This document shows positions 40,067 to 63,521 of a stretch of DNA of 64,000 bases, piece by piece (within the stretch, counting starts at the first letter, position 1; each line of letters starts with the position of its first letter). This stretch comes from Comamonas sp. (GTDB lineage: Bacteria > Pseudomonadota > Gammaproteobacteria > Burkholderiales > Burkholderiaceae_C): positions 186,001 to 250,000 of the forward strand of contig NZ_SPEY01000023.1 in assembly GCF_009360615.1 (NCBI RefSeq), in the 5' to 3' direction. The notes beneath the pieces are model-generated. The model ran no database searches, had not been told where the DNA came from, and saw only the letters and a program-made list of their open reading frames with translations. Made by a program: the position numbers and the translations under genes.

Positions 40067-40517
40067 CGCGTTCACGCATGAGCCAATAGGTCAGACCCAA
40101 GGCCAGTACCGTCCCCGCCAGCGCGGCCACTTTGGCAGGATCAACGTCGGGTTCTAGGATGATGAACTTGCGGGCCAGTGCCAGGATCGCGATCAGAATG
40201 ACGGTCTTGACCTGGATGATGCTTTCCTTGCGCAGAGCCACTTTGACGATCGAATGCTTGAATTCCATGGCGATCAGCAGCGTCATGGTGGCACCGAACA
40301 CCAGCTGGAAAACCTTATGATCCAGTGGATTCAGCGCATCCATGACGAGCAGTGTGAACACCAGCCGAATCAACTGAATCAGCGAAATCACAATTACCAA
40401 CGCGATGACGCCCGAAAGCGTGATGGCAACGAACTGCTCGAAGCGCTCGTAAACCGTCATCAACCGCCACTGGGAGCGTATCTCGTCAAGGGCCGTGTGG
40501 CCAGATTCTTTATTCAT
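40047..40517 (-). CDS. psiE: PsiE-family membrane protein
   Basis: 156 aa with four membrane segments (ITLSGVIALVIVISLIQLI; LVFTLLVMDAL; VFGATMTLLIAMEF; VILIAILALARKFIIL), as in phosphate-starvation-inducible PsiE. A psiE copy is a fixed member of tLST islands. Its biochemical role is not known. Confidence 0.85.
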   Translation of the reverse strand: MNKESGHTALDEIRSQWRLMTVYERFEQFVAITLSGVIALVIVISLIQLIRLVFTLLVMDALNPLDHKVFQLVFGATMTLLIAMEFKHSIVKVALRKESIIQVKTVILIAILALARKFIILEPDVDPAKVAALAGTVLALGLTYWLMRERDDRKSE

Positions 40518-40592
40518 AAGCGTTGCGCTCTCTCTTTCAATGAAACGTTAATGGAACGGAGAGTCCGAGAAGACGACTCGATCACACCTGAA

Positions 40593-41033
40593 TCACCGGG
40601 GCAATTGCGAAGCCACCCAGCGCATAATGTCCTGCGCGCCCATGGCGCCCGCCTGACGTGCAACCTCATGTCCCCCCCGGAACAAAATCAGGGTTGGAAT
40701 GCTGCGAATACCGAACTGGGCGGCCAGGTGAGGCTCGGCCTCGGTATTTACCTTGGCCAACCTCACCTTGGGTTCAAGCAGGGAGGCTGCCTGCTCGAAC
40801 TGCGGCGCCATCATCTTGCACGGTCCACACCACGGCGCCCAAAAGTCAACCAGCAGCGGCAGGTCACTGCGCTCCAGATGACGGGCGAAGGTCGCTGTGG
40901 TCAGATCAATGGGTTCTCCGGTGAACAGCGGGTGCTGGCACCGCCCGCAATTGGGCTTCTCTGCCAACTTGTTGGCTGGCACGCGATTGATGGATTGGCA
41001 GTGTGGGCAGACGATATGAATGCTGTCACTCAT
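40593..41033 (-). CDS. trxC: Thioredoxin 2 (TrxC type)
   Basis: 146 aa from the ATG at 41033, which overlaps the ftsH stop (ATGA). An N-terminal zinc ribbon (CPHC...CGRC) and the active site WCGPC in a standard thioredoxin fold mark the oxidant-resistant Trx2 form. It reduces disulfides in cytosolic proteins and belongs to the stress-locus operon. Confidence 0.93.
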
Positions 41034-42913
41034 GAGGGGGCTCCTTGGGACACAGAGGAAGTAATGGCTCCGGCAGTTGGGCCGCTGTGACATGGGGATT
41101 CGAGCTGTAGCCCTTGCGTCAGTTGCCGGATGCTGTATTCATCCAGCGTTTCCCGTGCGAGCAGTTCGCGCGCGCACCGCTCCAGCACTTCTCGGTTAAT
41201 TTCGAGAATTCGGTATGCACGATCAAACACACCCATCACGATGTCACGGATGGCTTGGTCGATGCGTGTCTGTGTCGATTCGGCTACCCGGCAGCCACCC
41301 TGTACCAGTTCAGGCGCATCAAGAAAACGCGGCCTCTGTGCCTCAAAAGCAACGTACCCCAAGCCCTCATCCATGCCGAAGCGCGTAATCATATCGCGGG
41401 CGATGTCGGTGGCCCGCGCGAGATCGTCTGAAGCCCCTGTGGACAGCTCGCCAAACACGAGCTTCTCAGCCGCGCGCCCTCCCAGGAGCACGGCGATCTT
41501 GTGCTCCAGGTCGGCACGTGTCATCAGAAATCGGTCTTCGGTGGGCCGCTGCAGGGTGTAGCCGAGTGCACCGATGCCACGCGGAACGATTGAAATCTTG
41601 TGTACCGGATCGGTGCCGGGCAGCGCCAGCGCCACCAGCGCATGCCCCATCTCGTGATAGGCCACGGTTTCCCGCTCCTTGGGATTGAGCACTCGGTTCT
41701 TCTTCTCCAGGCCCGCCACGATGCGCTCGATGGCGGCGGTGAAATCCTGCAACTCCACGGCGGACGCTTTGCGCCGGGTCGCGGCCAGCGCGGCCTCGTT
41801 GACCAGGTTCGCGAGGTCTGCACCCGAAAAGCCCGTGGTCAGCGCAGCCACCTGTTCGAGATCGATATCCTGAGCCAGCGTCACCTTCTTGACGTGGACT
41901 TTCAGGATGTCCAGCCGTCCCTTCTTGTCGGGCCGGTCCACCAGCACCTGACGGTCGAAGCGACCGGCGCGCAGTAGCGCCTGGTCGAGGATTTCGGGGC
42001 GGTTGGTGGCGGCGAGGATGATCAGCCCGACCGAGCTGTCGAAGCCGTCCATCTCCGTGAGCAGCTGGTTGAGGGTCTGCTCGCGCTCGTCGTGGCCGCC
42101 GATGGGGCCGCCGACGCCGCGCGCGCGGCCCAGCGCATCGAGCTCGTCGATGAAGATGATGGCCGGCGCCTGCCCGCGGGCCTGCTCGAACAGGTCGCGC
42201 ACGCGCGCTGCACCCACGCCGACGAACATCTCGACGAACTCCGAGCCTGAGATGGAAAAGAACGGTACCCCGGCCTCGCCCGCCACGGCCTTGGTCAGCA
42301 GGGTCTTGCCCGTGCCGGGCGGGCCAACCAGCAACACACCTTTCGGGATGCGCGCCCCGAGCCGTCCATACTCCTGCGGATTCTTGAGGAAATCGACGAT
42401 CTCAACCAACTCCGCCTTAGCCTCATCGACACCAGCGACATCGGCAAAGGTCACGCCAGTGTTCTTCTCCATGAATACCTTGGCACGGCTCTTGCCGATG
42501 CTCAGGAAGCCGCCCATGCCCTGCTTCTCGGCGAAGCGGCGGAACAGGAAGAACCAGACGCCGAAGAAGGCCACCGCCGGCAGAATCCAGGAGAGCACAT
42601 CACGTAGCCAGGTGCTTTCCACCACCCGCGCGTAAGGCACGTCGTACTTGGACAGCCGCTCGGCCAGGTCGGGTTCGACGCGAGTGGCCACGATGGTGGT
42701 CTTGCCCCGGCTGTCCGGCGATTTCAGGCGCCCGGTGACCGTGCGGTCCGACACCAGCACTTCGGCGACGCGCCCCTCGGCCAGCGCCTTCTCGAATTCG
42801 CTGTAGGGCACGGGCTCGACGGTCTTGGCCGCCTGCCAGTAGTTCTGCAGCGTCAGCAGCAACAGGCCGGCGACGATCCAGTAGCCAATGTTCCATTGAT
42901 CTTTCTTTTCCAT
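41030..42913 (-). CDS. ftsH: FtsH-type AAA+ membrane metalloprotease of the stress locus
   Basis: 627 aa. Two N-terminal membrane segments ([31 protein letters not shown]) flank a short periplasmic domain. Then AAA+ Walker A GPPGTGKT, Walker [12 protein letters not shown] ([20 protein letters not shown]), and the protease zinc site HEMGH (most FtsH proteins have HEAGH). It degrades damaged membrane and cytosolic proteins. This is the additional, island-borne FtsH of tLST, distinct from the housekeeping copy expected elsewhere. Confidence 0.93.
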
Positions 42914-42940
42914 GGGCAATGTTCCTCGCAAGTCGTGCCG

Positions 42941-44371
42941 CTAGAGAATGGGGGTGAACAGACGGGCCACCCCGTCGCGCAAGCGGATGGCCAGCGGGCG
43001 GGCGCGCAACGCCATGGCCGATATCTCGTTCGATGCATCACGGGCGGCATCAAAAAGGGATTCCAGCCGCGTAGACAGCGCGGTGTCGTACACCTCCACA
43101 TTGAACTCGAAGTTGAGGCGCAGGCTGCGCGCATCCCAATTGGCCGAACCCAGGCAGCACCACTGGCCGTCTATCAGCATCAGCTTGCTGTGGTCGAACG
43201 GGCCAGGCCGTTCGAAGATGCGTACACCGTGCTCCAGCACCTGCCAGTAGTGGGCGCGCGCGGCCCATTGCACCGTGGGATGGTCGCCGTTTGCGGGCGT
43301 CAGCACCTCGACGCGCACGCCGCGCAACGCGGCCGTGCTCAGCGCCGCGATCATCGGCTGATCGGGCACGAAGTAAGGTGTCCAGATGCGCACCGAATGC
43401 TTCGCCGCGCTCAAAGCGCCCATGAAGGTCCAGCGCATCCTGTCCAGGGCCTCATCGGGACCGGCCTCGATGCCGCGCGCCCAAGAGGTTCCTTGCTCAT
43501 CAGCCGTTGCGGGCGGTTCGCCCCAGAAACCCTTGCTGAGCCGCTCGCCCGTGGTATCGCACCAATCATCGGTGAAGCACCGCATCAGATGCGCAACCAC
43601 CGGCCCGCGCAGACGAAAGTGCAAATCGTGACAGGCCTGCTCCGGCGCATCGGGCCGCCAATACGGGCTGCAGATGTTCATGCCACCGGTGAAACCTGTC
43701 TCGCCATCGATCACCAGCAGCTTGCGGTGATTGCGCAGATGCGCGGCATGCAGGCGCGCGGGAATCAACGTCGGGTTGAACGTAGCTGCCGGAACGCCGG
43801 CGCGTTGCAAGGCGCGGTAGGCGCTGCGGGGCGACCAGCGGGCATAGACGTCGTCGATCAGCACCCGCACTTGCACGCCGCGCTCATGAGCCCGGCGCAG
43901 CGCATCGACGAACTGCGCCCCGATGCCTTGGCTGTCGAAGATGTACGAAGCCAGCGCGACGCTGTGCCGCGCCGACTCGATGGCAGCGAGCATGGCCGGG
44001 TAGGCCTGCTCGCCATCGACGAGCGGCTCGATGCGGTTGCCGCTGGTCAGCGACTGGCCGGTGGCACGTCCCACCAGGTGCGCCAGGCCGGCAAACGGCG
44101 CCGATACGGCCTGGGGCATCGTAGGCACGAGGTCCTGCCGAACAGCAGGATCTGCCCCCGGAAACAGCCGCCGCGCCCGCCGCTGGTAACGGTTGATGCC
44201 GAACAGCCCATACAGCAGCGAACCGGCAAGCGGCAACAAGGCGATCAGCAGTACCCACAGCGTGGCCGATCGCGGGTCACGCTTGTAGATGATCGCGTGC
44301 CCCGCTGTGGGGATAGCGACCGCCAGCGACACGAGGGTGGCTGCCCATGTCAGCCCGTTGGGGTCGGACAC
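42941..44371 (-). CDS. cls: Phospholipase D-type cardiolipin synthase
   Basis: 476 aa from the GTG at 44371, with GGGGAGG just upstream; a TTG 7 codons earlier is also in frame. Two N-terminal membrane segments, then two PLD motifs, HRKLLVIDGE near residue 208 and HSKLMLIDGQ near 392. Condenses phosphatidylglycerol into cardiolipin. It sits between clpK and ftsH; it could protect the membrane under heat or chlorine stress, inferred from context. Confidence 0.88.
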   Translation of the reverse strand: MSDPNGLTWAATLVSLAVAIPTAGHAIIYKRDPRSATLWVLLIALLPLAGSLLYGLFGINRYQRRARRLFPGADPAVRQDLVPTMPQAVSAPFAGLAHLVGRATGQSLTSGNRIEPLVDGEQAYPAMLAAIESARHSVALASYIFDSQGIGAQFVDALRRAHERGVQVRVLIDDVYARWSPRSAYRALQRAGVPAATFNPTLIPARLHAAHLRNHRKLLVIDGETGFTGGMNICSPYWRPDAPEQACHDLHFRLRGPVVAHLMRCFTDDWCDTTGERLSKGFWGEPPATADEQGTSWARGIEAGPDEALDRMRWTFMGALSAAKHSVRIWTPYFVPDQPMIAALSTAALRGVRVEVLTPANGDHPTVQWAARAHYWQVLEHGVRIFERPGPFDHSKLMLIDGQWCCLGSANWDARSLRLNFEFNVEVYDTALSTRLESLFDAARDASNEISAMALRARPLAIRLRDGVARLFTPIL

Positions 44372-44388
44372 GACAGCCTCCCCATGAC

Positions 44389-47238
44389 TCAAGATTCGCC
44401 GCCCGCTGACTTCTTCTTGCGCGCAGGCTTGCTCGCGTCGCTCGGCGGCGTCTCGGCCACGTTCGCGGCATCGGGCTTCTCAGGCTCGGCCGGCTTCGCG
44501 GGTGGCTCCTGGCGCTCGAAGACCACCCGTTCGGCCTTGTCGTCCCAGCGGGCGCTGGCGTGATCGGCCTTGCCGATACCGCCACCCAGCATCTCGCGCG
44601 CCAGAGCAGTTTCCAGCTCGCTGCGGATCAGCCGCTTGAGCTCACGCGCGCCGAACTCGGGCTTGTAGCCTTCCTCCGCGAAGTGATCGATCAAGGTCTG
44701 ATCGAAGGCGAGCGTCACGCCCTGGCTGGCGGCGTTGCGGGCCACACGATCGAGCTGCAGGCCGACGATATGGCGGATCTCCTCCTTGCCCAGCGCATGG
44801 AAGACGATGATCTCGTCGATGCGGTTGAGGAACTCGGGGCGGAAGTGTCCGCGCAGCACGTCCATCACCTCGCCCTTGGTCTTCTCGTATTCCTCGCCGG
44901 CGGCGCCACGGGCCTTCAGCCGACGCTGGATGATGTCCGAGCCCAAGTTCGAGGTGGCGATGATGATGGTATTGGTGAAATCCACCACCCGGCCCTTGCC
45001 GTCGGTGAGCCGCCCGTCGTCGAACACCTGCAGCAGGATGTTGTAGACGTCGGGGTGAGCCTTCTCGATCTCGTCCAGCAGCAACACGCTGTAGGGTTTG
45101 CGCCGCACCTTCTCGGTGAGCTGGCCACCCTCGTCGTAGCCGACGTAACCCGGAGGCGCCCCCACCAGGCGTGCCACGGTATGGCGTTCACCGTACTCGG
45201 ACATGTCGATGCGCAGCAGAGCACCTTCATCGCCATAGATGGACTCGGCCAGCGCCTTGGCGAGCTCGGTCTTGCCCACGCCGGTCGGCCCGAGGAACAG
45301 AAAAGTCGCCACCGGCTTGCTGCCTTCGCGCAGGCCCGCGCGCGACAACCGCACGGCATCGGCCACCGCGCGCACTGCTTCGTCCTGGCCCACCAGGCGC
45401 TCGTGCAGCCGCTGCTCCAGATGCAGCAGCTTCTCGCGTTCTTCCACCGTCAGCTCGTTGACCGGAATGCCGGTCAGGCGCGAGACGATCTGCGCGACAT
45501 GCTCGGCCTTGACTTCGGCGCTGCCCGAGGCGCGCTCGCGTTCCCATTCCTCGACAAGCTTCTTGAGTTCGGCCTCTTTGGCCTCGATGTGCTTGCCCAG
45601 CTCGGCGGCCTTGTCGTACTGCTTGCGCGAGGCCACATAGTCCTGCTCACGCCGCAGCTGGTGCAGTTCGGACTCCAGCTCTTGCACCGCCACCGGGCGG
45701 GCCGTGGCCGACAGCTTCACGCGTGCGGCCGCCTGGTCGAGCAGGTCGATGGCCTTGTCAGGCAAAAAGCGCGCGGTGATGTAGCGGTCCGACAACTCGG
45801 CGGCGGCGATGATCGCATCCTCGGTGATGCTGACCTTGTGGTGTGCCTCGAAGGTGTCGCGCAGGCCGCGCAGGATCATCATGGTCTGCGCTACCGTCGG
45901 CTCGGGCACCATCACCGGCTGGAAGCGACGCTCCAGCGCGGCGTCCTTCTCGATGTACTTCTGGTACTCGTTGAGCGTGGTGGCGCCGATCAGGTTCAGT
46001 TCGCCGCGCGCCATCATCGGCTTGAACACGTTGGCCACGTCCAGCCCGCCTTCGCCGCCACCCTGGCCTGCACCGACGATGGTGTGCACCTCGTCGATGA
46101 AGAGAATCAGCTCGCCCTGGTGCTCGGTCACTTCCTTGAGCACCTTCTGCACGCGCTCCTCGAACTCGCCCCGGTACTTGGCGCCAGCCACCATGGCATT
46201 GATGTTGAGTTCCACCAGGCGCTTGTCGCGCAGCGTCTCAGGCACTTCACCGGCCACCATGCGCTGCGCCAACCCTTCGACGATGGCGGTCTTGCCGACG
46301 CCGGGCTCGCCGATCAGCACCGGGTTGTTCTTCTTGCGCCGGGCCAGCACTTCGATGGTCGTCTCGATCTCCTGCGCGCGGCCGATGACCGGATCGAGCT
46401 TGCCCTCGCGCGCCATCTTGGTGAGGTCGCGCGAATACTTGTCGAGTTCCGGCGTGTTGGTCGGCGTCTCGGCGCGGCCATCCTCGGCCCCTTTGCCGAC
46501 CACCTTGCTTACCTGCTGGCGCAGCGCTTGCGGCGTGAGGCCGTAACGGCGCAGCAGGTTGGCCGCCAAACCTTCGCCTTCCTCGGCGAGCCCGATCAGG
46601 AAATGCTCCGGCCCGACATAAGAGTGGCCGAGTTCGTTGGAGGCCACGAAAGCACGGCTGAGCGCGTCCTTGACCCGGGGCGACACGCCGATCTCGCCCT
46701 CGAACGGCTTATCGCCGCGCTTGGCTTCGGATTCGATCTGGCGCTTGAGGTCATCGACCTTGATCTTGAACTGCCCCAGGATGGTCTTGACCACGTCGCT
46801 GTCGGATAGCGCCAGCAGCAGGTGTTCGGTATCGACTTCGGCGCGCCCGAACTCTGCAGCGTGTCGGGCGGCCTCCTGCAATAGGGCCTCGGACTGTTCG
46901 CTGATACGGCTGGCGAGCCCACTGCCGCGACGGCGCGCGGTGCCCGTACCGGCCGGGGCGGGTTCGCCGAACGAGGCATCGACGACCTCGTCGGTATCGG
47001 CCGCCATGGACGGTGCGTCGTCACCGATGCGGAAGAAGTCGCTGCCAAGGAAGTCTTCGAACAGCCCGCTGCGCGAGCCGAACAAGGCTTCCAGCGGTGA
47101 GACGGTGCGCTTTTGCTGGCGCACCAGTTGGCGATAGTGATCGTCACACAACAGCATGGTGCTGTGGCGACCATTGAGATTGGCTTCCACCCGCACCGTG
47201 GCGGGCTGGCCGCAGACTTGGCATTGTTTTCTGGCCAT
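44389..47238 (-). CDS. clpK: ClpK (ClpG_GI) disaggregase
   Basis: 949 aa. A short N-terminal zinc-type segment (CQVCGQ...CDDH) specific to the ClpK/ClpG group comes first, then a Clp N domain and AAA1 with Walker [19 protein letters not shown], a short middle coiled coil, and AAA2 with [15 protein letters not shown], ending in an extended Lys-rich tail. It is a stand-alone, highly heat-stable disaggregase that rescues aggregated proteins, and its presence defines tLST islands. Confidence 0.95.
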
Positions 47239-47267
47239 GCTGATGCTCCTGTAAAGATTGATCTGAC

Positions 47268-47292
47268 GAGGCACCGCCGATCGCGGTGCCTC
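47268..47292 (-). other. Stable hairpin between hsp20 and clpK
   Basis: Perfect 10-bp stem GAGGCACCGC (47268-47277) / GCGGTGCCTC (47283-47292) with a 5-nt loop in the 93-base gap between hsp20 and clpK. In the direction of transcription no T-run follows, so it is more likely an mRNA-stability or processing element setting the hsp20:clpK ratio than a terminator. On the plus strand a T-rich stretch does follow. Confidence 0.45.
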
Positions 47293-47331
47293 ATCTCTTT
47301 GTGGTTTTTGAGAAAAACGCGCTGCCCCGCG

Positions 47332-47901
47332 TCAGCCGTTGATCGGGATCGAGCGCCCCTGCTTGGGCGTACTGGCCTCGCGCTTGTCCATCGTGATCGT
47401 GAGCACGCCGTTCTTGAAAGCGGCCTTGATCGTGTCCTGGTTGGCATCGGCCGGCAGGTTCAGAGCGCGCTGAAAGCTGCCGTAGGAGCGCTCCACCCGG
47501 TGGAAACCGCCGTCTTTCGTTTCCTGCTCCTGACGCTTTTCACCGCGCACCAGCAGCACGTCGTTGTCGAGCGTGATCTGGATGTCTTTTTCCTCGATGC
47601 CGGGTACTTCCAGGGCGATCTTGTACTGCTTGTCGGTCTCCTGGATGTCCAGCGCCGGCTTCAGCATGCCCGGCCAGTCCGACGGCCAGCGTGGCATGGC
47701 CAGCGTCGGGAAACCGAAGCCTCGAAACGCGTCGTCGAACAGGCGGTCGATCTCGCGATGCAATTGCAGGATGGGACTGACGGGCCCACCCGCCACAGGC
47801 AGGTCATTGCGCTGCACCGGCAGCGAGGCAGTGCTCTGTTGTTCTTCCTGCTCCTTTTTGAACCAGTTCCAGGGAGCCAATTTCTTGAAATCAATGTCCA
47901 T
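47332..47901 (-). CDS. hsp20: Small heat-shock protein Hsp20 of the stress locus
   Basis: 189 aa from the ATG at 47901 (a longer open frame is ignored). The alpha-crystallin domain runs about residues 80-180 (KPALDIQETDKQYKIALEVP; LLVRGEKRQEQE) with a C-terminal I-x-I-type motif (RSIPING). An N-terminal arm, DIDFKKLAPWNWFKKEQEE, is that of the tLST sHsp20. It holds denatured proteins for ClpK. Only one sHsp gene is present here. Confidence 0.93.
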   Translation of the reverse strand: MDIDFKKLAPWNWFKKEQEEQQSTASLPVQRNDLPVAGGPVSPILQLHREIDRLFDDAFRGFGFPTLAMPRWPSDWPGMLKPALDIQETDKQYKIALEVPGIEEKDIQITLDNDVLLVRGEKRQEQETKDGGFHRVERSYGSFQRALNLPADANQDTIKAAFKNGVLTITMDKREASTPKQGRSIPING

Positions 47902-47933
47902 GTCATACCTCCAGAAATCAATTGAAGACTCAC

Positions 47934-48215
47934 TCAATCCGCTTGCCTGCGGCTATGGATAGCGCGCCCAGGCAACACGGGATGTTTCGCTGACTTCGGC
48001 TGCTCATCTGTGCGTATCACCTCCTTCTTTCTGCCTGCTTGGATCTGATCATTGATCCATTGATCGATTTCACTTTGACGAAACCGCCACGTCCCGCCGA
48101 CCTTGAAGGCCGGAATTTCCCCGTGCGCGGCGAGCCGGTAAAGCGTCCGCTTGCCGACCTTTAAGTAGGTAGCCAACTCGTCGAGTGTGAAGATCGCCTG
48201 CTGGCGCGCTGTCAT
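47934..48215 (-). CDS. Excisionase-type helix-turn-helix regulator, first gene of the stress locus
   Basis: 93 aa from the ATG at 48215, chosen because the family begins TARQQAIFTLDELATYLKVG; the open frame extends upstream through the operator. A MerR/excisionase-type winged HTH (YLKVGKRTLYRLAAHGEIPA; WRFRQSEIDQWI). It leads the operon in published tLST loci. The inverted repeat at 48262-48281 is its likely target. Confidence 0.85.
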   Translation of the reverse strand: MTARQQAIFTLDELATYLKVGKRTLYRLAAHGEIPAFKVGGTWRFRQSEIDQWINDQIQAGRKKEVIRTDEQPKSAKHPVLPGRAIHSRRQAD

Positions 48216-48862: not shown

Positions 48863-50038
48863 TCAGCTCACGGCCTTCAGGGTGGCCTTGGGCTTCTGGT
48901 AGTCCTCGCGGATGAACTTACCGTAGGTTCGAAATACCATCTCCACGTCCTCATGCCCCAGTTGCTGGGCCACATACCAAGGGTTGGCTCCGGCCGTCAG
49001 CAGGGTCGACGCGAAGGTGTGGCGGATTTGATACGGGTTGCGGTATTCGATTCCAGACCGCTCCATGAGAGGCAGCCATAGCGTCTTGCGGATCTGGGCG
49101 TCCGTAGTCCACGGCTGCAGTGTCCGCGGATTCAGCCATACCCGGTGTCCGCGCATCTGGCTGAACGGCCGCTGGAGTCTCAGCGCTTCCATGGCCTCCG
49201 CGTTCAGCTCTACCTCTCGCTTACCGGCCTCGGTCTTGGGCGCTTTGATGACGCCGACAACCTGATTGAGCACGATCCTGGCGATGCGCCGATCCACGTC
49301 GATGTGCTCCCAGCGCAGTGCTTGGAGCTCGCCGGGCCGCAGGCCGGTGTTGAACCAAAATTGGATCATCGGTCGCTCATCCTCGCGGCATGCCAGCAGG
49401 ATCTGCTCGCGTTCGGCCTGCGTGAATGGCTGGATCACATAGTCGCTGGCTTTGCTGTTCTGGCGGATCAGCTTGGCCAGGGCGATGCGGTCGAATGGGT
49501 TGTACTCGATCAACCCGTCGTTCAAGGCGTCCTCGAACACACTACGCAGCGGAGTCAGCAAGTTACGGATGGCCTTGCTGGTGCAGTCCATCTCGCTGAT
49601 CCAGTCGCGCAGTTCAGAGGGCGTGGCTTCGTGCAGTTGCTTGCCATGCCAGTGCTTCATGCGGGAGCTGTTGATCGCTTTGGCGTATCCGTTGTAGGTG
49701 GCGGGGGACATTTTCCCGTTCGCCACCTGCTTCTCATACAGGTCGAGCTGGGCCTGCAGCTTGTGTTGCAGCGACTGACTGACCTTGTCGGGCCCGCGTG
49801 CCTTGGGGCTGTCTGGGAAGTAGTCCGCATATTTGAACGTGCCATCGTTTATACGGCGTTTGATTTCCGCACGGAGGTTGGCGGCGTACAGGATGCTGGA
49901 CTTGTTGATCGGGCCCAGTGGCAACAGCTCCCGGCACTGTTGCTTTTGCCACGAGAAAGCGATCTGGATGCGCTGTACCGTGGCTTTGACCCGGATTGTT
50001 ACGCCAGGCGGCGTGGGGAGATTTGGCTTTGGATCCAT
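48863..50038 (-). CDS. int: Tyrosine-type site-specific integrase
   Basis: 391 aa from the ATG at 50038. An N-terminal arm-binding domain (RVKATVQRIQIAFSWQKQQC, of the DUF3596 type), a core-binding SAM-like domain, and a catalytic domain with Arg (TGLRPGELQALRW), His-x-x-Arg (YQIRHTFAS), His (QLGHEDVEMV) and the nucleophile Tyr (FRTYGK). It integrates the phage at its attachment site and excises it with Xis. The start overlaps xis by 40 bases. Confidence 0.95.
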   Translation of the reverse strand: MDPKPNLPTPPGVTIRVKATVQRIQIAFSWQKQQCRELLPLGPINKSSILYAANLRAEIKRRINDGTFKYADYFPDSPKARGPDKVSQSLQHKLQAQLDLYEKQVANGKMSPATYNGYAKAINSSRMKHWHGKQLHEATPSELRDWISEMDCTSKAIRNLLTPLRSVFEDALNDGLIEYNPFDRIALAKLIRQNSKASDYVIQPFTQAEREQILLACREDERPMIQFWFNTGLRPGELQALRWEHIDVDRRIARIVLNQVVGVIKAPKTEAGKREVELNAEAMEALRLQRPFSQMRGHRVWLNPRTLQPWTTDAQIRKTLWLPLMERSGIEYRNPYQIRHTFASTLLTAGANPWYVAQQLGHEDVEMVFRTYGKFIREDYQKPKATLKAVS

Positions 50039-50262
50039 TTGTCGGCTTCCTTGATGTTTACGTAAAGGCGGCGGGCGACCACGGCGCAATGCTTGCCGTC
50101 CAGCCAGACACCAGCGCGGCGGCGGTTGTGCACAGCCATGGGTGTGACGCCGGTCAACTCTTCATATTTCTCGGCCAGCACCCAGTCAACGCTGGGTTCC
50201 TGGCCAGGGTCGGTGCGCACGGTATCCCGAGTTGCTGCAGTAGCTGTTTCAGTCTGTTTCAT
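49999..50262 (-). CDS. xis: Excisionase
   Basis: 87 aa from the ATG at 50262 (GGAG upstream). The frame is open to an ATG at 50400, which would read through a terminator hairpin. A winged HTH of the phage excisionase type: VDWVLAEKYEELTGVTPMAV, NRRRAGVWLDGKHCAVVARR, LYVNIKEADKWIQSQ. It overlaps the integrase start, the common xis-int arrangement, and directs integrase toward excision. Confidence 0.75.
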   Translation of the reverse strand: MKQTETATAATRDTVRTDPGQEPSVDWVLAEKYEELTGVTPMAVHNRRRAGVWLDGKHCAVVARRLYVNIKEADKWIQSQISPRRLA

Positions 50263-52553: not shown

Positions 52554-52774
52554 TGCATGCTCCATGAAATGCAGGATCCGGATGTGCAGCGGCCGGAGGT
52601 CACGCCGCTGGTCAGGACGGTGAAATTCAGCCGGCTTTTGCAGCGCGGACACTCAAGGTGCCCGGTCACTTTCTCGGCCGGGGCGAAGGTGGGCGGGGCG
52701 CAGTAGGTGCGCTTTACCTGGGCCAGGGCGGCCCGGATGTGTGGCGCCTGGGCGCTGAATGCTGCGGTCGTCAC
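52550..52774 (-). CDS. Small zinc-ribbon protein
   Basis: 74 aa, GTG start overlapping the preceding stop (GTGA). A C-terminal zinc ribbon CPRCKSRLNF...CTSGSC. Probably nucleic-acid or protein binding. Unidentified. Confidence 0.6.
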   Translation of the reverse strand: MTTAAFSAQAPHIRAALAQVKRTYCAPPTFAPAEKVTGHLECPRCKSRLNFTVLTSGVTSGRCTSGSCISWSMQ

Positions 52775-53712
52775 GGTGTTGGCACCTCATCCCAGGTGCG
52801 GCCATCTAGTTGTCGGCCGGCGGCCTTCTTACCGACGAGGTGGTAGCGGCCTTGGCCTTCGACCATGGCGAACTCCTTGATCGGCGCAAACCCGTTTTCA
52901 GCGCGCGCAGCGCCGTGCTGGCTCGGTGCGATCCACTCGCCCCACTGTTTGAACAGAAAAGGCACGCCGGCAGCCTGGCACTGATCGCGCAGTGAGCGCG
53001 CCCAGTCGGGATGCATAGGCCTTGCGCCGGGACCGCTCTCGCCACCGACGATCACCCAATCGATCCCATAAAGCAAAGGCGGGTCTGCGGGCTTTCCCAT
53101 GCAGCCGCACTCATGACCACTGCAACACATAGGGGGGCCGTCAGGCCATAGTGACTTGGGATACTCCAGGTCCACCGGCCCAAGTAGCGGCTCCATTGAC
53201 AGGAAGCGAACGGCCGCGTCCACGGCTAGAAGCTTCGGAATATCGCGGTCGGCTTCTTCCTGGTTCACGACCGTGGCTCCAATCCATACATGCGGGTAGA
53301 GCTTCGCAAAGTCGAACGGCACAGGAAGCATGTTGCCCACGTTGCCAATGCGCTTGGTGAGCAGTAGCCAGTCCAAATTTGGCGTTGCCTCGATCAGCTT
53401 GAACAGGTCTTCGCGCCACTGAGGATCCACCGCGTTGTCGAATACATCGGCCAGGGAGGCGCAGAAGACCCGCTGTCGACGGCCGTGCTCAGCAAAAAAT
53501 GCCGCGTGATTGGCATTCCAGGCCAGCGGCTTACGCCAATTGCTGGCGCTGGTGCGCACCCGTTCGCCCTTCGGTCCCCATACAACCTTGTGCATGCGCT
53601 TGTCCATCAGGTGCTCTGCATAGCAGTTGTCGCACCCGGGGGACACCTTCGTGCAACCGATGAAGGGGTTGAAGGTGTGGTCTGTCCATTCGATTTTGCT
53701 GTTCTCAGCCAT
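52771..53712 (-). CDS. DUF5131 protein (phage Gp37/Gp68 family)
   Basis: 313 aa from the ATG at 53712 (GGAGAA upstream). KIEWTDHTFNPFIGC and CTKVSPGCDNCYAE are the radical-SAM-like signature of DUF5131, followed by VFCASLADVFDN and VIVGGESGPGARPM. Family members are widespread in phage early regions next to DNA modification genes. The chemistry is not known. Confidence 0.9.
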   Translation of the reverse strand: MAENSKIEWTDHTFNPFIGCTKVSPGCDNCYAEHLMDKRMHKVVWGPKGERVRTSASNWRKPLAWNANHAAFFAEHGRRQRVFCASLADVFDNAVDPQWREDLFKLIEATPNLDWLLLTKRIGNVGNMLPVPFDFAKLYPHVWIGATVVNQEEADRDIPKLLAVDAAVRFLSMEPLLGPVDLEYPKSLWPDGPPMCCSGHECGCMGKPADPPLLYGIDWVIVGGESGPGARPMHPDWARSLRDQCQAAGVPFLFKQWGEWIAPSQHGAARAENGFAPIKEFAMVEGQGRYHLVGKKAAGRQLDGRTWDEVPTP

Positions 53713-53729
53713 TGATTTCTCCATGCAAA

Positions 53730-53750
53730 TGGCCTGCACGAGGCAGGCCA
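53730..53750 (-). other. Hairpin between DUF5131 and C5-methyltransferase genes
   Basis: 8-bp stem TGGCCTGC (53730-53737) / GCAGGCCA (53743-53750), loop of 5. On the minus strand only a weak T-tract (ATTTGC) follows, so it is a poor terminator or mRNA hairpin. Confidence 0.35.
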
Positions 53751-53770: not shown

Positions 53771-55573
53771 TTATGTAGAAGCTGCTGGCAAGGTGAGGGC
53801 CACGGCGATAGGCCGCACCCAGATCGGCTGGGCCGACAGCAGGAAGGTTTCCCCGGCCCAGGCCAGCAGCAGCGTCTCGCCCATGACGTGGGCAATCGCC
53901 TCGCCGGCGGCGCTTGGGACCGCGTTGCCAATGCGTTCGCGCCAGGCCTGATCGCTCAGGCCGTCGAGCTCCAGCATCTCTTCGGGGTCGACGAGGCTCT
54001 GCAGGGCTGCCAGCTCCAGGGTGGTAAAGGGCCGGTGCCAAGTTCCATCCTCGGCGACGATCCGGCAGACCAGCTTTTCGGCTGGCGCTGGCATGGCGCG
54101 CGGGTCGGCTACTGTCCAGCGGCCGTTGTCGTGACAGGCCGCTGCACTGACCGCGCCGGCCGAAGATTCCCAAGGCACGACACCATAGTGGCCGCCGGTC
54201 AGGTAGTGGTCGCCGGCCTCACGCCGCATGCCTGGACGTGGATCGGCCACTGCAAATGCGCCATTGGCATTGCCTGCGATCACTGTGCGTGCCGACTCAG
54301 CCCAGGGCGTAACCGGATACTTGCCGTGCAGCAGGTCGGGATTCGGGCCACCGCGTGGGTCTGCTACTGCCTGGCCTGTTCCGTGAGCACTGGTCACAGC
54401 CATGGATGCCCGGTCCCAGCGAACGATGCGGAACTCATTGCTGTGCTTGGCCGGGCCGTGATGGCGCGGGTCTGCCACGCTGTAGGCGCCCTGGCCAGGA
54501 CCTTGCTGGCCGGCCACGGTTCCAGTGCTGCCATTCCACCGGCGCACGCCATAGGCCTGGCCGTCCTTCCACAGCGCAGACTGTTCGAATCGGGGATCGG
54601 CCACGGCAAAGTTGCCGCATGCTGGCCGACCCTTGCCTGTTATGGTGGTGCTGGTCCGATTCCAATCTTGGACGCCCAGGACGCCGGCATGCATTTCGGG
54701 CACGATCAGGTAATCACGCAGCTGGCCATCCTCGATCGCCAGACGGTTCAGGCTTCGCCAGTCGGATCCAGCCTCTACGAATGCCAGCCGCACCCAGGTC
54801 TTCCACTGCAGACTGGGCACGCGGTGCATGGGCCCGGCGCGCAGGTCGCCCGGCAGCAGCATGCGGCCCAGCACGTCGCCAACGGCGCGCAGCGGCTTTG
54901 CATCAGGCTGGTAAAGGAAGGGAGGCACCTTCTCGATGTGACGGGCCACCAGCAGGAAGCGCTTGCGGCTCTGGGCCAGGCCGCCGATCTCGCCACAGTC
55001 GTGGGTGGTCTCAGCCACGGCGTAGCCGTAGGAGCGCAGCAGGCCCACGATCTGGTCCAGCAGATGCCGGCCGCGCGTGGCGATCCTGGGCACGTTTTCG
55101 AAGATGATCAGCTCGGGAGGGTCGTCGTGCCAGGCCTCCAGCATCAGCCAGACGCCGCGCAGGGTCAGGCGGTTCAGGGCTTGGTACTTGTCGGTCTTGC
55201 TCTTGCCCTCAGACAGCAGGCCGCTGAAGCCTTTGCAAGGGGCCGACAGGAACACGATGTGCGGGCGCTCTCCGCCGGCTGCGCGCTGGATGTCGGCGGC
55301 CGTGGCCTCCTGCCAGTCCGCCGGCGGTTCACTGCCGTGGAAGGTGCGGTACTGCTCGCGGTCGAACAAATCCAGCACGGTGCCAGGCACGCCGGTCAGG
55401 CGCCCGAAGTCTCGGATGCTGGCTGAGTCCACGTCGATCCCACCGATGCAGCGGAAACGAGCCTGCAGGGTGCCCACGCGCGGGCTGGCCCGATTGAAGC
55501 CTCGGGCACCGCCGCCGAGACCACAGAAGAGGTGGAAGTGCTTGATTTCTTTGGTGATCATCGTTGTGCTCAT
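53771..55573 (-). CDS. C5-cytosine DNA methyltransferase with five VADPR repeats
   Basis: 600 aa from the ATG at 55573. N-terminal catalytic motifs: I FHLFCGLGGGARGF, IV SAPCKGFS with the nucleophile Cys, VI ENVP, VIII GLAQSRKRF. The target-recognition stretch (residues about 270-510) is replaced by five ~37-43-residue repeats, each ending in VADPR and holding a W...A/T-V turn (for example VRRWNGSTGTVAG, VTPWAESARTVIAG, VVPWESSAGAVSA). C-terminal motif X-like GNAVPSAAGEAIAHVMGE closes the fold. It methylates cytosine, probably to protect phage DNA from restriction. A terminator hairpin sits just upstream. Confidence 0.85.
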   Translation of the reverse strand: MSTTMITKEIKHFHLFCGLGGGARGFNRASPRVGTLQARFRCIGGIDVDSASIRDFGRLTGVPGTVLDLFDREQYRTFHGSEPPADWQEATAADIQRAAGGERPHIVFLSAPCKGFSGLLSEGKSKTDKYQALNRLTLRGVWLMLEAWHDDPPELIIFENVPRIATRGRHLLDQIVGLLRSYGYAVAETTHDCGEIGGLAQSRKRFLLVARHIEKVPPFLYQPDAKPLRAVGDVLGRMLLPGDLRAGPMHRVPSLQWKTWVRLAFVEAGSDWRSLNRLAIEDGQLRDYLIVPEMHAGVLGVQDWNRTSTTITGKGRPACGNFAVADPRFEQSALWKDGQAYGVRRWNGSTGTVAGQQGPGQGAYSVADPRHHGPAKHSNEFRIVRWDRASMAVTSAHGTGQAVADPRGGPNPDLLHGKYPVTPWAESARTVIAGNANGAFAVADPRPGMRREAGDHYLTGGHYGVVPWESSAGAVSAAACHDNGRWTVADPRAMPAPAEKLVCRIVAEDGTWHRPFTTLELAALQSLVDPEEMLELDGLSDQAWRERIGNAVPSAAGEAIAHVMGETLLLAWAGETFLLSAQPIWVRPIAVALTLPAAST

Positions 55574-57383: not shown

Positions 57384-59297
57384 TTAAACAGTGGCGCTCT
57401 GCAGGTCGTCTGCCAGCTTGCGGGTGCCCATCGAGATCAGCAGCAGCAGTCGACGGACCTGGTTGACGGGGATCTGCACCGAGCCGCGGTCCTTGGCGTA
57501 TGGAATGCCGTGGAAATCGAGGGTTGCAGCTGAAATCTGACCGAGGCCGGCATCCTTCAATCGGGTATTGATCTGACCAATAGTCAGCTTTGCTGCCTGT
57601 TCGTCAGCGGCTGGAGCTGCTGCAGCGCTGGCCTGGGCAGTGCTGATCGCCTGCTGAGCGTCGATGCCGGCCACGCCTTCTGCAGCCTGCTCAGTGACCA
57701 GTCCGGCCAGATCCTCTGCCAGTGGCTTGGCCAGATCGCTTGCCCGTACCGCCTGGGCGATATCGGCCTGTGCAGCCTGGGCCTGCTGCTGCACCTGCTG
57801 GCGCTGCTGGGCGGCATCAGCCTGGGCCTTTTGCTGCTCCTCGGCCCGGATGCGAGCGCGATCAGCTTCAAGTTGGCGCGCCTGCTCAGCGGCTTCGGCT
57901 GCAGCTTTCGCTTCGGCTTCACGCCTGGCCTTGGCTTCCTCTTCTGCGCGGATCCGGGCACGCTCGGCTTCCAGGCGCTCGGCCTCGGCCTGCTTGAAGT
58001 CGTTGATGCGCATGGTGGCCATGGCCTTGAAGACATCAGGCTCCTTCACTCCCATTGCTGGAAAGTCCGGGAACAGCGTGATCCAGTCTTGGCCCGAGCC
58101 ATCGCTGCGAAGGAAGTCACGGTTCAGCAGCAGGGTGTTGGCAGTGGTCTGGGCCTGCAGCTTGGCATTGGTCAGTGCCACGGCAACCTTGTCGCGCATG
58201 CTGTCCAACGACTTCAGGCCCTTGATCGTTTCCGCAAATCCGCCCGCAACCCGAGGCAGCCAGTAGGTGCCAAGCTGCTTGTTCAGGCTCTCCACATGCA
58301 CGTCCAGCGCCTGCTGAGCTTCCTGGACGATGACCTGCTTGCGCACATCCTTCTCTGACTTGACGCGCTTTTCCAGGTCGATGGCCTTGCGGGTGGCGAT
58401 CTGGTCCAGCTGCTCGAGCACGTTGAGCACGTCATCCACCGACTGCATGTCGGAACGCACCTTCTTGCCGGCCTGCTTCATCGCACTGGAGACATCCCGC
58501 AGCCATTTCGCATCGGCGTCGGCGTCAGCGAACTGCTGGTCTGTCTCCAGCACCGCGTTGACGCTGTTGATGCGCTCCAGTACCTCGACCCTGAAGCTGT
58601 CCAAGGTGCTGGTTGTGATCTCGCCGCGGGCTTCAATGCGCAGCACCGGCAGTGCGTCGCGGATCTTGGCCTCGGGCTGAGGCTTGGGCTCGGCGGGCTG
58701 GGGCTGGTAGGCTGCCACATCCTTTTCAATCTGCTCCCAGCCGGCGATGATCTGGGCCCGCAGCTCCGCGTCGGGCTCGTACCAGCAGTGCAGAGCTTCA
58801 ACGGGAAGGCCCTCGTCGGTCCATTTGCTGGCCATGAACAGGATGCGTTCGGATCCCGAGACCATGGCCTGCTGCTCCATCTGCACGCGATATTGCAGCG
58901 GCAGGTCTGCACCTGTGCAGCCGGCCTCCATGACGCCGCGCAGGGTGCTGTTGAGCGTCTTGTGCTCAAAGGCCACATCGTTCATGAACGTCAGGCCGTC
59001 GAAGCTGGCTGAGTACTTGCCACGGGTGCCGACGCAGGGCGAGAGGTCTTCGCCGATGATCTGCTCGGCCAGCGGCCGGGCCAGTGCTTCGAACTGGTGC
59101 CCATCGCTGAAGCGGCGCTGAGTGGCTGCATCGATTTCGGGTGTGATTCCTGTTGCCATTTCCTTGACCAGCTCGGAGCGGGACTTGTACGAGCTGGCGC
59201 CCATCATGGCTGGGGCGTCCGAGGCGTTGAAGTGCTGGGCGCGGTGGGCATGCCATTCGGGGCTGCCTTGTACGAGGTTCACGATTTGCATGGTCAT
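57384..59297 (-). CDS. YqaJ-type exonuclease fused to a long coiled coil
   Basis: 637 aa, ATG overlapping the RecT stop (ATGA). Residues about 1-200 are a YqaJ/lambda-exonuclease fold: GSPEWHAHRAQHFNASDAPA, SDGHQFEALARPLAEQ, FDGLTFMNDVAFEHK, YRVQMEQQAMVSG. This is followed by a DUF1351-like helical part, then a ~120-residue Ala/Glu/Arg/Gln coiled coil (residues about 430-530). It resects DNA ends so that RecT can anneal strands. Confidence 0.85.
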   Translation of the reverse strand: MTMQIVNLVQGSPEWHAHRAQHFNASDAPAMMGASSYKSRSELVKEMATGITPEIDAATQRRFSDGHQFEALARPLAEQIIGEDLSPCVGTRGKYSASFDGLTFMNDVAFEHKTLNSTLRGVMEAGCTGADLPLQYRVQMEQQAMVSGSERILFMASKWTDEGLPVEALHCWYEPDAELRAQIIAGWEQIEKDVAAYQPQPAEPKPQPEAKIRDALPVLRIEARGEITTSTLDSFRVEVLERINSVNAVLETDQQFADADADAKWLRDVSSAMKQAGKKVRSDMQSVDDVLNVLEQLDQIATRKAIDLEKRVKSEKDVRKQVIVQEAQQALDVHVESLNKQLGTYWLPRVAGGFAETIKGLKSLDSMRDKVAVALTNAKLQAQTTANTLLLNRDFLRSDGSGQDWITLFPDFPAMGVKEPDVFKAMATMRINDFKQAEAERLEAERARIRAEEEAKARREAEAKAAAEAAEQARQLEADRARIRAEEQQKAQADAAQQRQQVQQQAQAAQADIAQAVRASDLAKPLAEDLAGLVTEQAAEGVAGIDAQQAISTAQASAAAAPAADEQAAKLTIGQINTRLKDAGLGQISAATLDFHGIPYAKDRGSVQIPVNQVRRLLLLISMGTRKLADDLQSATV

Positions 59298-60262
59298 GGC
59301 TTTTCCAGTTCTGCCACTCGGGCATCAAAATGGTCGGTGAGGGTTGCTTGCAGCGAGGGGTCGGGCACGGCTTCAATCAGGCCCCCCAGCTCGTAGAGCT
59401 TGTCCAGGTCTTTGCAGGCCTTGATATCTGCTTCCAGCTTTGCGGGATCGACAGCCGGTGCAGTCGCGTCGAGTGCAGGCTCAACTGCTGCTTTTTTGCG
59501 TTTGGCCACCTCCTCCTGCAACTGCTTCTCTTGGGAGGGTGTGACGGTTGCCTTGGACTTGAGCCAAGCCAAAACATCAGCCATGGTCTTGATTCCATCA
59601 ACGACGGACTGAGCCCATTTGCCCACGTTGTGGTCAAACTTAGCTTGGTCGTAGTCAGGCAAGACCACCTCGGCTTGGCCCATGTGGCGCTCGCCCTGGG
59701 CTGCCGGCTGTGTCGTGTTGGCCATGTCCTGCAGCTCTTCTGCCACGGGCATACCGCGGAGAACATCGGGGAACACGTCGCGCAGGGCGAAGGCTCGAGC
59801 GCGCATCTGGCGCATGCGCTTTGGGTATTGACTCCATGGGCCTTGCTTTCCGGCCAGGCCAGCCTTCTGTGCATCCTCCATGCTGAAGGTGCGAACCTGC
59901 TCTGGTGCGCCTTTGCGCTTGACCCGACACGTGGCTGTGTGCCCGTCGTCTTCTTCGGTCACGTACTCGCACACAGGACTGCTGAGCACTAGGGCAATCA
60001 CAGCATCGCCCCAGAGGGCTGGGCGCCCGTTGATAACGGCCAGGTTCTGCAATGACTGCAGCGGCTTCAAGCCCAGTTCTGCGCCCCATTGCATGGCAAT
60101 CAGGCAGTTTCCCGGCTTGCCTTTGAAGTCCTTGGGCACCATGTCGCTGTCGGCCAGGTAGTTGGAGAAGGTCAGGGCCTGCTCAAAGTTCTGCGGGCTC
60201 AGATCAAACTGACTGGCCGGGCGCAAGGCCGTGACCGACTGATGTGCAAGAGCATTGCTCAT
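59294..60262 (-). CDS. recT: RecT-family single-strand annealing protein
   Basis: 322 aa from the ATG at 60262 (ATGA overlap with the preceding small gene). RecT signature: FSNYLADSDMVPKDFKGKPG, then LIAMQWGAELGLKPLQSLQN and RMRQMRARAFALRDVFPDVL, with a helical C-terminus (DLDKLYELGGLIEAVPDPSL). It works with the YqaJ exonuclease in phage recombination. Confidence 0.93.
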   Translation of the reverse strand: MSNALAHQSVTALRPASQFDLSPQNFEQALTFSNYLADSDMVPKDFKGKPGNCLIAMQWGAELGLKPLQSLQNLAVINGRPALWGDAVIALVLSSPVCEYVTEEDDGHTATCRVKRKGAPEQVRTFSMEDAQKAGLAGKQGPWSQYPKRMRQMRARAFALRDVFPDVLRGMPVAEELQDMANTTQPAAQGERHMGQAEVVLPDYDQAKFDHNVGKWAQSVVDGIKTMADVLAWLKSKATVTPSQEKQLQEEVAKRKKAAVEPALDATAPAVDPAKLEADIKACKDLDKLYELGGLIEAVPDPSLQATLTDHFDARVAELEKP

Positions 60263-60366
60263 GAAAACCTCACTTGAGTGATAAAGGCGACGAGGGCGGC
60301 AGCGCTGCTGGCCACCCACAAAAGAAAAGCCCGGGCGGTACCGGGCTCGTGATCGGGTTGGTTCAT
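60259..60366 (-). CDS. 35-aa single-pass membrane protein containing a terminator hairpin
   Basis: ATG at 60366, TGA at 60259, ATGA overlaps at both ends. The product has a Pro/Asp start (NQPDHEPGTA) and a membrane segment (LLWVASSAAALVAFI). The hairpin GCCCGG/CCGGGC plus the T-run of the terminator at 60320-60346 lie inside its coding sequence and encode ...RAFLL.... Confidence 0.55.
   Translation of the reverse strand: MNQPDHEPGTARAFLLWVASSAAALVAFITQVRFS
60320..60346 (-). terminator. Intragenic terminator in the tiny membrane gene
   Basis: On the minus strand stem AGCCCGG-TACCGC-CCGGGCT followed by TTTCTTTTG. It lies within the 35-aa gene above, between recT and the upstream operon. Confidence 0.65.
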
Positions 60367-62855: not shown

Positions 62856-63521
62856 TCACTTTCGTCTGAACTTGCGTCGGTGCTCGGTCATCGTGCCGAT
62901 GACAACCATGTGATGCTCATCGCTTCGCATAACGGGATAGTTGTCGTTTAGAGGTACTAGCTCAAAGATCTCGTTGCCCTTTTCATCAATGCCGCGTACA
63001 CGATACTTCTTGAAAGTGGCTTCTTGTTTGCCGTTTTTGGCTGCGACGAAATCTCCAGGCCTAGGCTGAATTTCTGGATCGATTCTTACCCGGTCGCCTT
63101 CATTGAACTCCGGAAGCATGGAGTCGCCCTTGATTTCAAGAAAAAAGGCCCATTGAGATGCATCGTTGTCGCCGTACTCAATATCGAACCCGTCGCCGGG
63201 TCCATACGGTTCCGCAATTTCTTTCATATGCCCAGCTTGAATGTGAGAGATCACGGGGTAGGCACGGGCACCAGGCGAGACTGCAACCACGTTTTGGTCC
63301 ATTTTCGGCTCCATAGAGCCTTCTCCTGTTGCCAACCAGCTTTGGTTAACTCGCAGAACAGCAGCAGCCTTAAGTAAGTTCTCGCCCCGCAAGAACTTTG
63401 ATTTCCCACTTAACCAGCCGTGCACGCTGGGTGGTTTGACCCCGCAAGCACGTGCAAGGTCGGCCTGGTTAACGCCAGCTTTTTCCATCGCCAGTGTCAG
63501 GCGGTCGGCAAGTGTAGACAT
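62856..63521 (-). CDS. CI-type repressor with S24 self-cleavage domain
   Basis: 221 aa from the ATG at 63521. The HTH has QADLARACGVKPPSVHGWLS, followed by a linker with the cleavage Ala-Gly (HIQAGHM) and a LexA-like S24 domain with Ser (GDSMLPEF) and Lys (ATFKKYR). It keeps the lysogen and is inactivated by RecA after DNA damage. The operator site TTAGGAGAGCCTAA begins at its start codon. Confidence 0.93.
   Translation of the reverse strand: MSTLADRLTLAMEKAGVNQADLARACGVKPPSVHGWLSGKSKFLRGENLLKAAAVLRVNQSWLATGEGSMEPKMDQNVVAVSPGARAYPVISHIQAGHMKEIAEPYGPGDGFDIEYGDNDASQWAFFLEIKGDSMLPEFNEGDRVRIDPEIQPRPGDFVAAKNGKQEATFKKYRVRGIDEKGNEIFELVPLNDNYPVMRSDEHHMVVIGTMTEHRRKFRRK

What the first reader, a model, noticed from the sequence alone, without database searches (positions are those of the whole stretch)
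53771..55573. C5-methyltransferase whose recognition part is five VADPR repeats
Seen: catalytic motifs I, IV, VI and VIII are intact; between VIII and the C-terminal motif lie five 37-43-residue repeats, each with an aromatic/W-turn-TV-G pattern and ending in VADPR. Known: multi-specific C5 methylases of Bacillus phages carry several recognition modules. Inference: repeats could each read a target, giving broad protection against restriction, or form a repeat solenoid on DNA.
Basis: partly seen in the sequence, partly recalled or inferred. Interest (0 to 1): 0.72.

Follow-up and report, generated by a model that had tools for sequence, protein, structure and literature searches.

The report
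Phage methylase with swappable recognition units
A prophage gene encodes one DNA-methylating enzyme that carries a row of five related but different recognition units, which related phages gain, lose and swap one at a time, so it probably lets one enzyme mark several DNA sequences and hide phage DNA from bacterial restriction enzymes.

Summary
On the minus strand, 53774-55573 encodes a 600-aa C5-cytosine methyltransferase in the early region of a temperate prophage. Catalytic motifs are present. Between motifs VIII and IX lie five units of 42, 42, 37, 39 and 46 residues, each ending in VADPR.

The units are best read as tandem target-recognition domains (TRDs). Two ordinary single-TRD enzymes align by sequence through the first unit's core (GVYGRMEWDKPAPTMTT against GVLGVQDWNRTSTTITG). 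Across 147 distinct relatives there are 778 units of 44 types in 87 arrangements, 2-8 units each. Only 1 of 147 repeats a type (shuffles: 19-51), and 0 of 778 units is closest to a unit of its own protein. Near-identical catalytic domains carry different inner units; the window's fourth unit is exchanged in relatives 95-98% identical in the catalytic part. Two blocks per unit co-vary across an indifferent turn, as two recognition loops should. The last unit is nearly constant; the first comes from a first-only but variable group.

No methylation was shown, and AlphaFold2 could not fold the units. The principle is known from Bacillus SPbeta-type phages. This is a separate, widespread, highly modular lineage in Pseudomonadota phages: a new variant of a known kind.

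The parts
53771..55573 (-). C5-cytosine methyltransferase gene with five VADPR units, 600 aa, stop included
54716..55573 (-). catalytic part, residues 1-286, motifs I (55496-55537), IV (55220-55249), VI (55082-55105), VIII (54944-54979)
   Evidence: PF00145 at 12-213; fold of the catalytic part of relative L161 matches M.HhaI and DNMT1
54590..54715 (-). unit 1 (residues 287-328), type 37, a first-position type; aligns with the single TRD of two ordinary enzymes
54464..54589 (-). unit 2 (residues 329-370), type 29, exchangeable inner unit
54353..54463 (-). unit 3 (residues 371-407), type 3, exchangeable inner unit
54236..54352 (-). unit 4 (residues 408-446), type 20; replaced by type 24 or 23 in relatives 95-98% identical in the catalytic part
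54098..54235 (-). unit 5 (residues 447-492), type 27, the last unit in 143 of 147 relatives
53774..54097 (-). C-terminal part (residues 493-600) with motifs IX (53993-54043) and X (53891-53935)
52771..53739 (-). neighbour downstream: DUF5131 (Gp37/Gp68-type) protein
   Evidence: PF07505 E 3.8e-93
57384..60265 (-). neighbours upstream: YqaJ-like recombinase and RecT, early recombination module of the prophage
48863..50041 (-). prophage integrase
   Evidence: PF00589 and PF12167

Best explanation
A temperate-phage orphan C5-cytosine methyltransferase with one catalytic domain and a tandem array of target-recognition domains. Each VADPR unit is a copy of the single TRD element of ordinary C5 methyltransferases (strand, W-turn, T-V, loop, strand, ending in VADPR where ordinary enzymes have HP..R before motif IX). 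Two variable blocks per unit, just before the first strand and just after T-V, read the DNA; the W-turn and VADPR are frame. One unit at a time docks with the catalytic domain, so the enzyme methylates as many short targets as it has working units. Phages keep sets of different units and exchange them, above all the inner ones, by recombination at the conserved VADPR seams, which re-tunes which host restriction enzymes the phage DNA escapes. Shown by sequence: the array, similarity of the unit core to a TRD, the non-redundant sets, the swapping, the two co-varying blocks. Inferred: DNA reading by each unit, one-at-a-time docking, recombination at VADPR, anti-restriction role. The last unit is nearly constant and may be structural or read a fixed target; the first belongs to a first-only group that itself varies.
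For: TRD homology: phmmer of the window protein against two ordinary single-TRD enzymes (361 and 372 aa, close to each other in sequence) runs through unit 1 (i-E 1.6e-12 and 2.5e-8 for the whole stretch, residues 62-314 and 150-314), and 2 of 12 matching PADLOC methylase models reach residues 314-317. With the unit HMM, the four best of 17 hits in 91 ORFs are that same TRD motif in four related enzymes (3.2-3.9 bits; best of 13 reversed-sequence hits 0.8). Modularity: 147 distinct proteins, 778 units, 44 types, 87 arrangements; a repeated type in 1 of 147 against 51 +/- 5 (free shuffle) and 19 +/- 3.4 (same-slot shuffle); 0 of 778 units closest to one in its own protein. Of 223 pairs with catalytic identity of 0.88 or more, 145 differ in arrangement; 8 of 15 clusters at 0.97 or more hold more than one arrangement. 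Swapped inner units: neighbouring units 0.85-0.89 identical in DNA, swapped blocks 0.35-0.45 (27 pairs, ungapped; gapped values for 16 chosen pairs). Code: clusters made from block II alone predict block I columns (fraction of entropy 0.40-0.67) but not the turn between them (0.05-0.17). Parallel family: ARM81-like phage enzymes carry another such unit, 76 distinct proteins, 402 units, 0 with a repeated type, and PMC5537653 calls ARM81ld_p31 relaxed in specificity.
Against: No methylation data. AlphaFold2 gave pLDDT near 30 for the units in both jobs, so docking and DNA contact are unmodelled. Unit-to-TRD matches by HMM are individually weak (i-E 0.32 or more), and the profile match to Bacillus TRDs is not significant (39 of 200 permutations reach it). 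Unit types keep a preferred order, and 9 of 12 types tested change less often on the catalytic tree than in any of 100 label shuffles, so part of the non-redundancy is descent. The shuffles ignore relatedness. A tested relative of the sister family, Phi2LM21_p23, left DNA sensitive to all enzymes tried in E. coli (PMC5537653).
Confidence: 0.8

Rival explanations
1. A broadly non-specific (for example CC- or GC-type) methyltransferase: the units together hold DNA and none reads a distinct target.
For: Members of the sister family are described as relaxed, or as modifying at least one C of CC, in PMC5537653. A sum of many short TRDs would look relaxed in restriction-protection assays, so the two readings overlap.
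Against: Generic clamps would not need about 44 types kept distinct within each protein, nor two co-varying variable blocks per unit.
Confidence: 0.12
2. Structural solenoid or spacer: the units stabilise the small domain and their number and kind do not matter for specificity.
For: The last unit is nearly constant and first units come from a first-only group; AlphaFold2 says nothing against it.
Against: Similarity of the unit core to a TRD; almost no duplicate types; whole-unit swaps behind near-identical catalytic parts.
Confidence: 0.05
3. Not a general anti-restriction device but an epigenetic regulator or immunity tag of the prophage, for instance controlling replication or packaging.
For: The gene sits in the early recombination region; the authors of PMC5537653 suggest a replication role for phage methylases. 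No neighbour among the 7 scanned with PADLOC matched a restriction-nuclease model.
Against: Frequent unit turnover suits an arms race better than regulation of a fixed site.
Confidence: 0.2

Closest known systems
Multispecific C5 methyltransferases of Bacillus phages SPR, SPbeta, phi3T, H2 (tandem TRDs)
   Same: One catalytic domain, tandem TRDs between motifs VIII and IX, mostly with a visible T-[LIV] core, different units within one enzyme, gene of a temperate phage (sequences of SPbeta, SPR, SPbetaL3 and relatives read; H2 not read; design stated in PMC8936443 and PMC12707154).
   Different: Separate sequence lineage, VADPR seam, 2-8 units, a fixed last type and a first-only group, about 44 types across Alpha-, Beta- and Gammaproteobacteria; profile match to Bacillus TRDs not significant.
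ARM81ld_p31 / RR1-A-type phage m5C methyltransferases (phrog_116)
   Same: Tandem units of about 35 residues with a (D/E)P..T[VI]TA core, 2-7 per protein in 80 ARM81-like ORFs, no repeated type in 76 distinct proteins; unit profiles align in register at T-V over 17 columns (score 13.3, 0 of 200 column permutations reach it, but probability only 10.9%); ARM81ld_p31 and the window protein both match phrog_116.
   Different: No VADPR, seam is LV..; reported relaxed specificity or CC (PMC5537653).
Ordinary single-TRD C5 methyltransferases (L370, L371; M.HhaI fold)
   Same: Catalytic fold and TRD core.
   Different: One TRD instead of five.

Membership tests
C5-cytosine DNA methyltransferase (PF00145) | Motifs I, IV (PC), VI (ENV), VIII (QxRxR), IX, X in order | tested here: met
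C5-cytosine DNA methyltransferase (PF00145) | Catalytic fold | tested here: met
   Model of relative L161: M.HhaI 2i9k Z 23.6, rmsd 2.9, 257 aligned; tested on L161, not on the window model
C5-cytosine DNA methyltransferase (PF00145) | Methylates cytosine at C5 | not testable with these tools
   needs expression and a methylome
Multispecific (tandem-TRD) methyltransferase | Several TRD units in tandem between motifs VIII and IX | tested here: met
   Position and number; TRD identity rests on few and partly weak alignments
Multispecific (tandem-TRD) methyltransferase | Units differ from one another within a protein and move as modules | tested here: met
Multispecific (tandem-TRD) methyltransferase | Methylates more than one target sequence | not testable with these tools
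   needs a methylome with single-unit deletions
Bacillus SPbeta-type multispecific methyltransferases | TRD units homologous to those of SPR/SPbeta/phi3T | tested here: inconclusive
   hhalign score 7.85, 39 of 200 column permutations reach it; no HMM hit in SPbeta MtbP
phrog_116 / ARM81-like array methyltransferases | phrog_116 profile match | tested here: met
   E 1e-50; the SPbeta and SPR enzymes match it too, so it is a broad family; the best match of the window protein is phrog_32684, unknown function, E 1.2e-117
phrog_116 / ARM81-like array methyltransferases | Same unit type and seam | tested here: not met
   Different consensus

The most novel reading that the evidence does not exclude
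VADPR arrays are a natural, ordered cassette library of at least 40 C5-methylation specificities shared by temperate phages of Pseudomonadota. Each unit carries a two-block reading code; inner units are exchanged at the VADPR seam, with a fixed last unit and a first-only group capping the array. Phages re-tune anti-restriction by swapping one cassette, and at least two different unit designs (VADPR and the ARM81-like one) obey the same rule that types are not repeated within a protein.
Probability: 0.5. Interest if true: 0.75.

Novelty: new variant of a known kind. Interest (0 to 1): 0.62.

Why it matters
If true, hundreds of related enzymes form natural swap experiments: pairs with nearly the same catalytic domain that differ in one unit should differ in one methylated motif. 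That makes the long-standing question of how a TRD sequence encodes its DNA target directly testable for C5 methyltransferases, and would give swappable parts for writing 5-methylcytosine at chosen short motifs. It would also show that phage multispecific methylation, known to me mainly from Bacillus phages, is common and fast-evolving in Pseudomonadota phages.

Tried and rejected
Structure: AlphaFold2 on the window protein (51 sequences, mean pLDDT 58.7) and on the two-unit relative L161 (47 sequences, 68.2) folded the catalytic part but not the units (pLDDT about 30), so no structural claim about them is made. Both prediction jobs are used.

PDB by sequence: the window protein and family profile A1 found nothing at E 0.01; the unit profile A3 found only a linker-like chance hit (E 5.4).

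Direct homology to Bacillus TRDs: not significant by profile, no hit of the unit HMM in SPbeta MtbP. I therefore claim the same design, not membership.

Restriction partner or defence island: one PF00145 gene in the own genome as held (93% complete); none of the 7 neighbours scanned with PADLOC matched a restriction-nuclease model (DUF5131 matched two candidate-system models). Host restriction systems were not looked for.

Literature: ten searches of an open-access library listed no paper that I recognised as describing VADPR repeats; the search for the word itself held 63 papers, of which the 20 listed were unrelated (mostly ADHD). Absence from this library is not absence from print. The key Bacillus paper (PMC450048) is not held; TRD size and motif numbering are recalled. 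Read as passages only: PMC4936722, PMC5537653, PMC12707154, PMC8936443, PMC5217972. PMC4936722 concerns an m4C enzyme and was set aside; PMC5217972 gave nothing on this enzyme.

First reading mended: I had taken the first unit as nearly constant like the last. One search shows first units of types 39, 37 or 38 in 137 of 147, but type 39 is loose (median similarity 0.60), and in 6 of the 16 chosen pairs the first units are only 0.67-0.77 identical in DNA although of one type.

Limits of the counts: types come from average linkage at 0.45 (arbitrary and coarse; within-type replacement is not counted); the unit HMM was built from the same loci it was counted on; loci are the best 80 of 401 viral and 80 of 100 genome candidates plus three phage records and the window's own copy; 164 ORFs gave 147 distinct bodies; catalytic comparisons use 145 (L081, the window copy, whose ORF is on the minus strand of its locus, and truncated L162 were left out). 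In one search I set the catalytic identity of the window pairs with L011, L002 and L003 by hand at 0.95; one search then measured 0.979, 0.951 and 0.968. Identities are ungapped and understate swapped units with indels; gapped values for 16 chosen pairs are. One search used 4 of the 11 weak places (E 9.6e-9 to 1.9e-4) at the end of the list, 2 of them chosen because they reach residue 314; in the list no other of the 11 does.

Full report
WHAT IS THERE. The gene lies on the minus strand, 53774-55573 plus stop, 600 codons. Residues 1-286 are the catalytic part of a C5-cytosine methyltransferase with motifs I, IV, VI and VIII; motifs IX and X follow in residues 511-561 (motif numbers recalled). 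Between them are five units, 287-328, 329-370, 371-407, 408-446 and 447-492, all ending in VADPR. In 20,000 composition shuffles of that stretch VADPR never appeared more than once. DNA-level repeats are nearly absent, so the units diverged long ago.

SURROUNDINGS. The gene sits in the early region of a temperate prophage: integrase at 48863-50041, DUF5131 directly downstream, KTSC protein, YqaJ-like recombinase, RecT, and an S24/HTH repressor at 62856-63521. It is the only PF00145 gene found in the 5.26-Mb genome as held. Relatives occur in 37 phage records, 32 of them over at least 80% of the protein, 401 viral stretches, 100 genome stretches and, counting weak ordinary-methylase matches, 26 of 299 genomes of the same bacterial family; titles of genome loci name mostly what I know as Beta-, Gamma- and Alphaproteobacteria. 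In LKA5 and Baskent_P6 a recombination-associated (RdgC-type) gene and a LexA-like gene lie within about 4 kb.

WHAT THE UNITS ARE. (a) Sequence continuity with ordinary enzymes: two single-TRD enzymes of 361 and 372 aa, close to each other, align with the window protein from the catalytic part through unit 1, GVYGRMEWDKPAPTMTTQ against GVLGVQDWNRTSTTITGK. Two further ordinary enzymes looked at align outside the units only. Read by eye, the alignment continues GRFGHPEQDR against GNFAVADPR, so VADPR stands where ordinary enzymes have the HP..R that leads to motif IX (inference). Two of 12 PADLOC models that match also reach unit 1. The unit HMM finds this motif first among 91 ORFs, in four related enzymes, though each hit is weak. 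(b) Units have a frame and two variable blocks. Clusters built from the block after T-V alone predict the block before the first strand (0.40-0.67 of its entropy) but not the equally variable turn between them (0.05-0.17). M.HhaI reads DNA with two loops around its T-L dipeptide (recalled), which fits.

HOW THE ARRAY EVOLVES. HMM unit numbers in 164 ORFs: 2 in 1, 3 in 1, 4 in 19, 5 in 79, 6 in 58, 7 in 5, 8 in 1. In 147 distinct proteins with 778 units of 44 types there are 87 arrangements; only L084 has a type twice, against 51 +/- 5 by free shuffle of inner units and 19 +/- 3.4 by same-slot shuffle; no unit of 778 is closest to one of its own protein. The shuffles do not allow for relatedness. 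The last unit is one type (27) in 143 of 147; the first is of type 39, 37 or 38 in 137 of 147, but type 39 is loose (median similarity 0.60). Of 223 pairs with catalytic identity of 0.88 or more, 145 differ in arrangement and 78 do not: L080/L078, 100% identical in the catalytic part, differ by one added unit; L105/L049, 99.3%, by a swap in slot 2. The window has types 37-29-3-20-27; L011 and L003 have 24, and L002 has 23, in the fourth slot, with catalytic identities 0.979, 0.968 and 0.951, while L001 (0.976) has the same five types. In DNA the fourth unit is 0.67 identical to L011, L003 and L002 while the rest is 0.81-0.91; against L001 it is the first unit that drops, to 0.69, although of one type. 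First units drop to 0.67-0.77 in 6 of the 16 pairs, so first units vary too. Over 27 single-swap pairs the neighbouring units are 0.85-0.89 identical, the swapped blocks 0.35-0.45, the swapped VADPR codons 0.78, which fits exchange at the VADPR seam. On the catalytic tree, 9 of 12 types tested change less often than in any of 100 shuffles, so there is descent: types 16 (3 against a mean of 10.8) and 3 (21 against 47.5) most clearly. But several types still change often: type 20, present in 19 of 145, needs 13 changes (shuffled mean 18.2); type 7, present in 15, needs 12 (14.5); type 14, present in 8, needs 7 (7.9). Descent and exchange both act.

A PARALLEL. ARM81ld_p31 and the RR1-A enzyme carry another tandem unit with (D/E)P..T[VI]TA. 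Among 80 ARM81-like ORFs there are 2-7 units each; of 76 distinct proteins with 402 units, none repeats a type and no unit is closest to one of its own protein. Their unit profile aligns with the VADPR profile in register at T-V (score 13.3; permuted mean 6.3, sd 1.4, 0 of 200 reach it) but over 17 columns and with low probability (10.9%). PMC5537653 (passages read) calls ARM81ld_p31 relaxed in specificity, and says relatives of RR1-A type modify at least one C of CC; one tested relative appeared inactive in E. coli.

MECHANISM. Most likely one catalytic domain is served by several alternative TRDs, as stated for Bacillus phages (PMC8936443 and PMC12707154, passages). Each working unit adds a target; exchange of units re-tunes protection. 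Shown here: array, similarity to a TRD, sets, swaps, blocks. Inferred: DNA reading, docking, anti-restriction. Whether the constant last unit reads DNA is open.

NOT SHOWN. No methylation, no structure of the units, no significant match to Bacillus TRDs.

NOVELTY. The principle is known. I recognised no description of this family in the listings of the ten searches named in Tried and rejected. It is a separate and widespread lineage with far more unit types than I know of for the Bacillus enzymes (recalled comparison): a new variant of a known kind.

Noticed in passing
window 39074-47937: ClpK-like 961-aa AAA protein, Hsp20, FtsH-like, thioredoxin, phospholipase-D-type and HtpX-like genes side by side: resembles a transmissible heat-stress tolerance island, next to the prophage integrase end. 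Names judged from sequence by eye.
   Followed up: no
window 52771-53739 (-): DUF5131 (Gp37/Gp68) gene directly downstream of the methylase; PADLOC lists it under candidate systems PDC-M41B and PDC-M30B. RR1-A also has a Gp37/Gp68 gene.
   Followed up: partly
L162 (Pseudomonas phage PA8) 2983-4043: The methylase gene has lost much of its catalytic part and is annotated under hypothetical proteins, while four units remain readable.
   Followed up: partly
L173-L252: A second family of phage C5 methylases with a different tandem unit, 2-7 copies, no type repeated within a protein.
   Followed up: partly
L109: A seven-unit copy on a contig labelled Candidatus Gottesmanbacteria; 58% identical to the window protein, perhaps a mis-binned contig.
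   Followed up: no
L375 1308-4004 (Baskent_P6): A large (898-aa) gene annotated DNA methyltransferase overlaps the start of the array methylase; in related phage records the feature there is named SNF2-type helicase.
   Followed up: no
L161 3001-4467: Shortest intact relative: two units, preceded by an IPDPR remnant that looks like a decayed first unit.
   Followed up: partly
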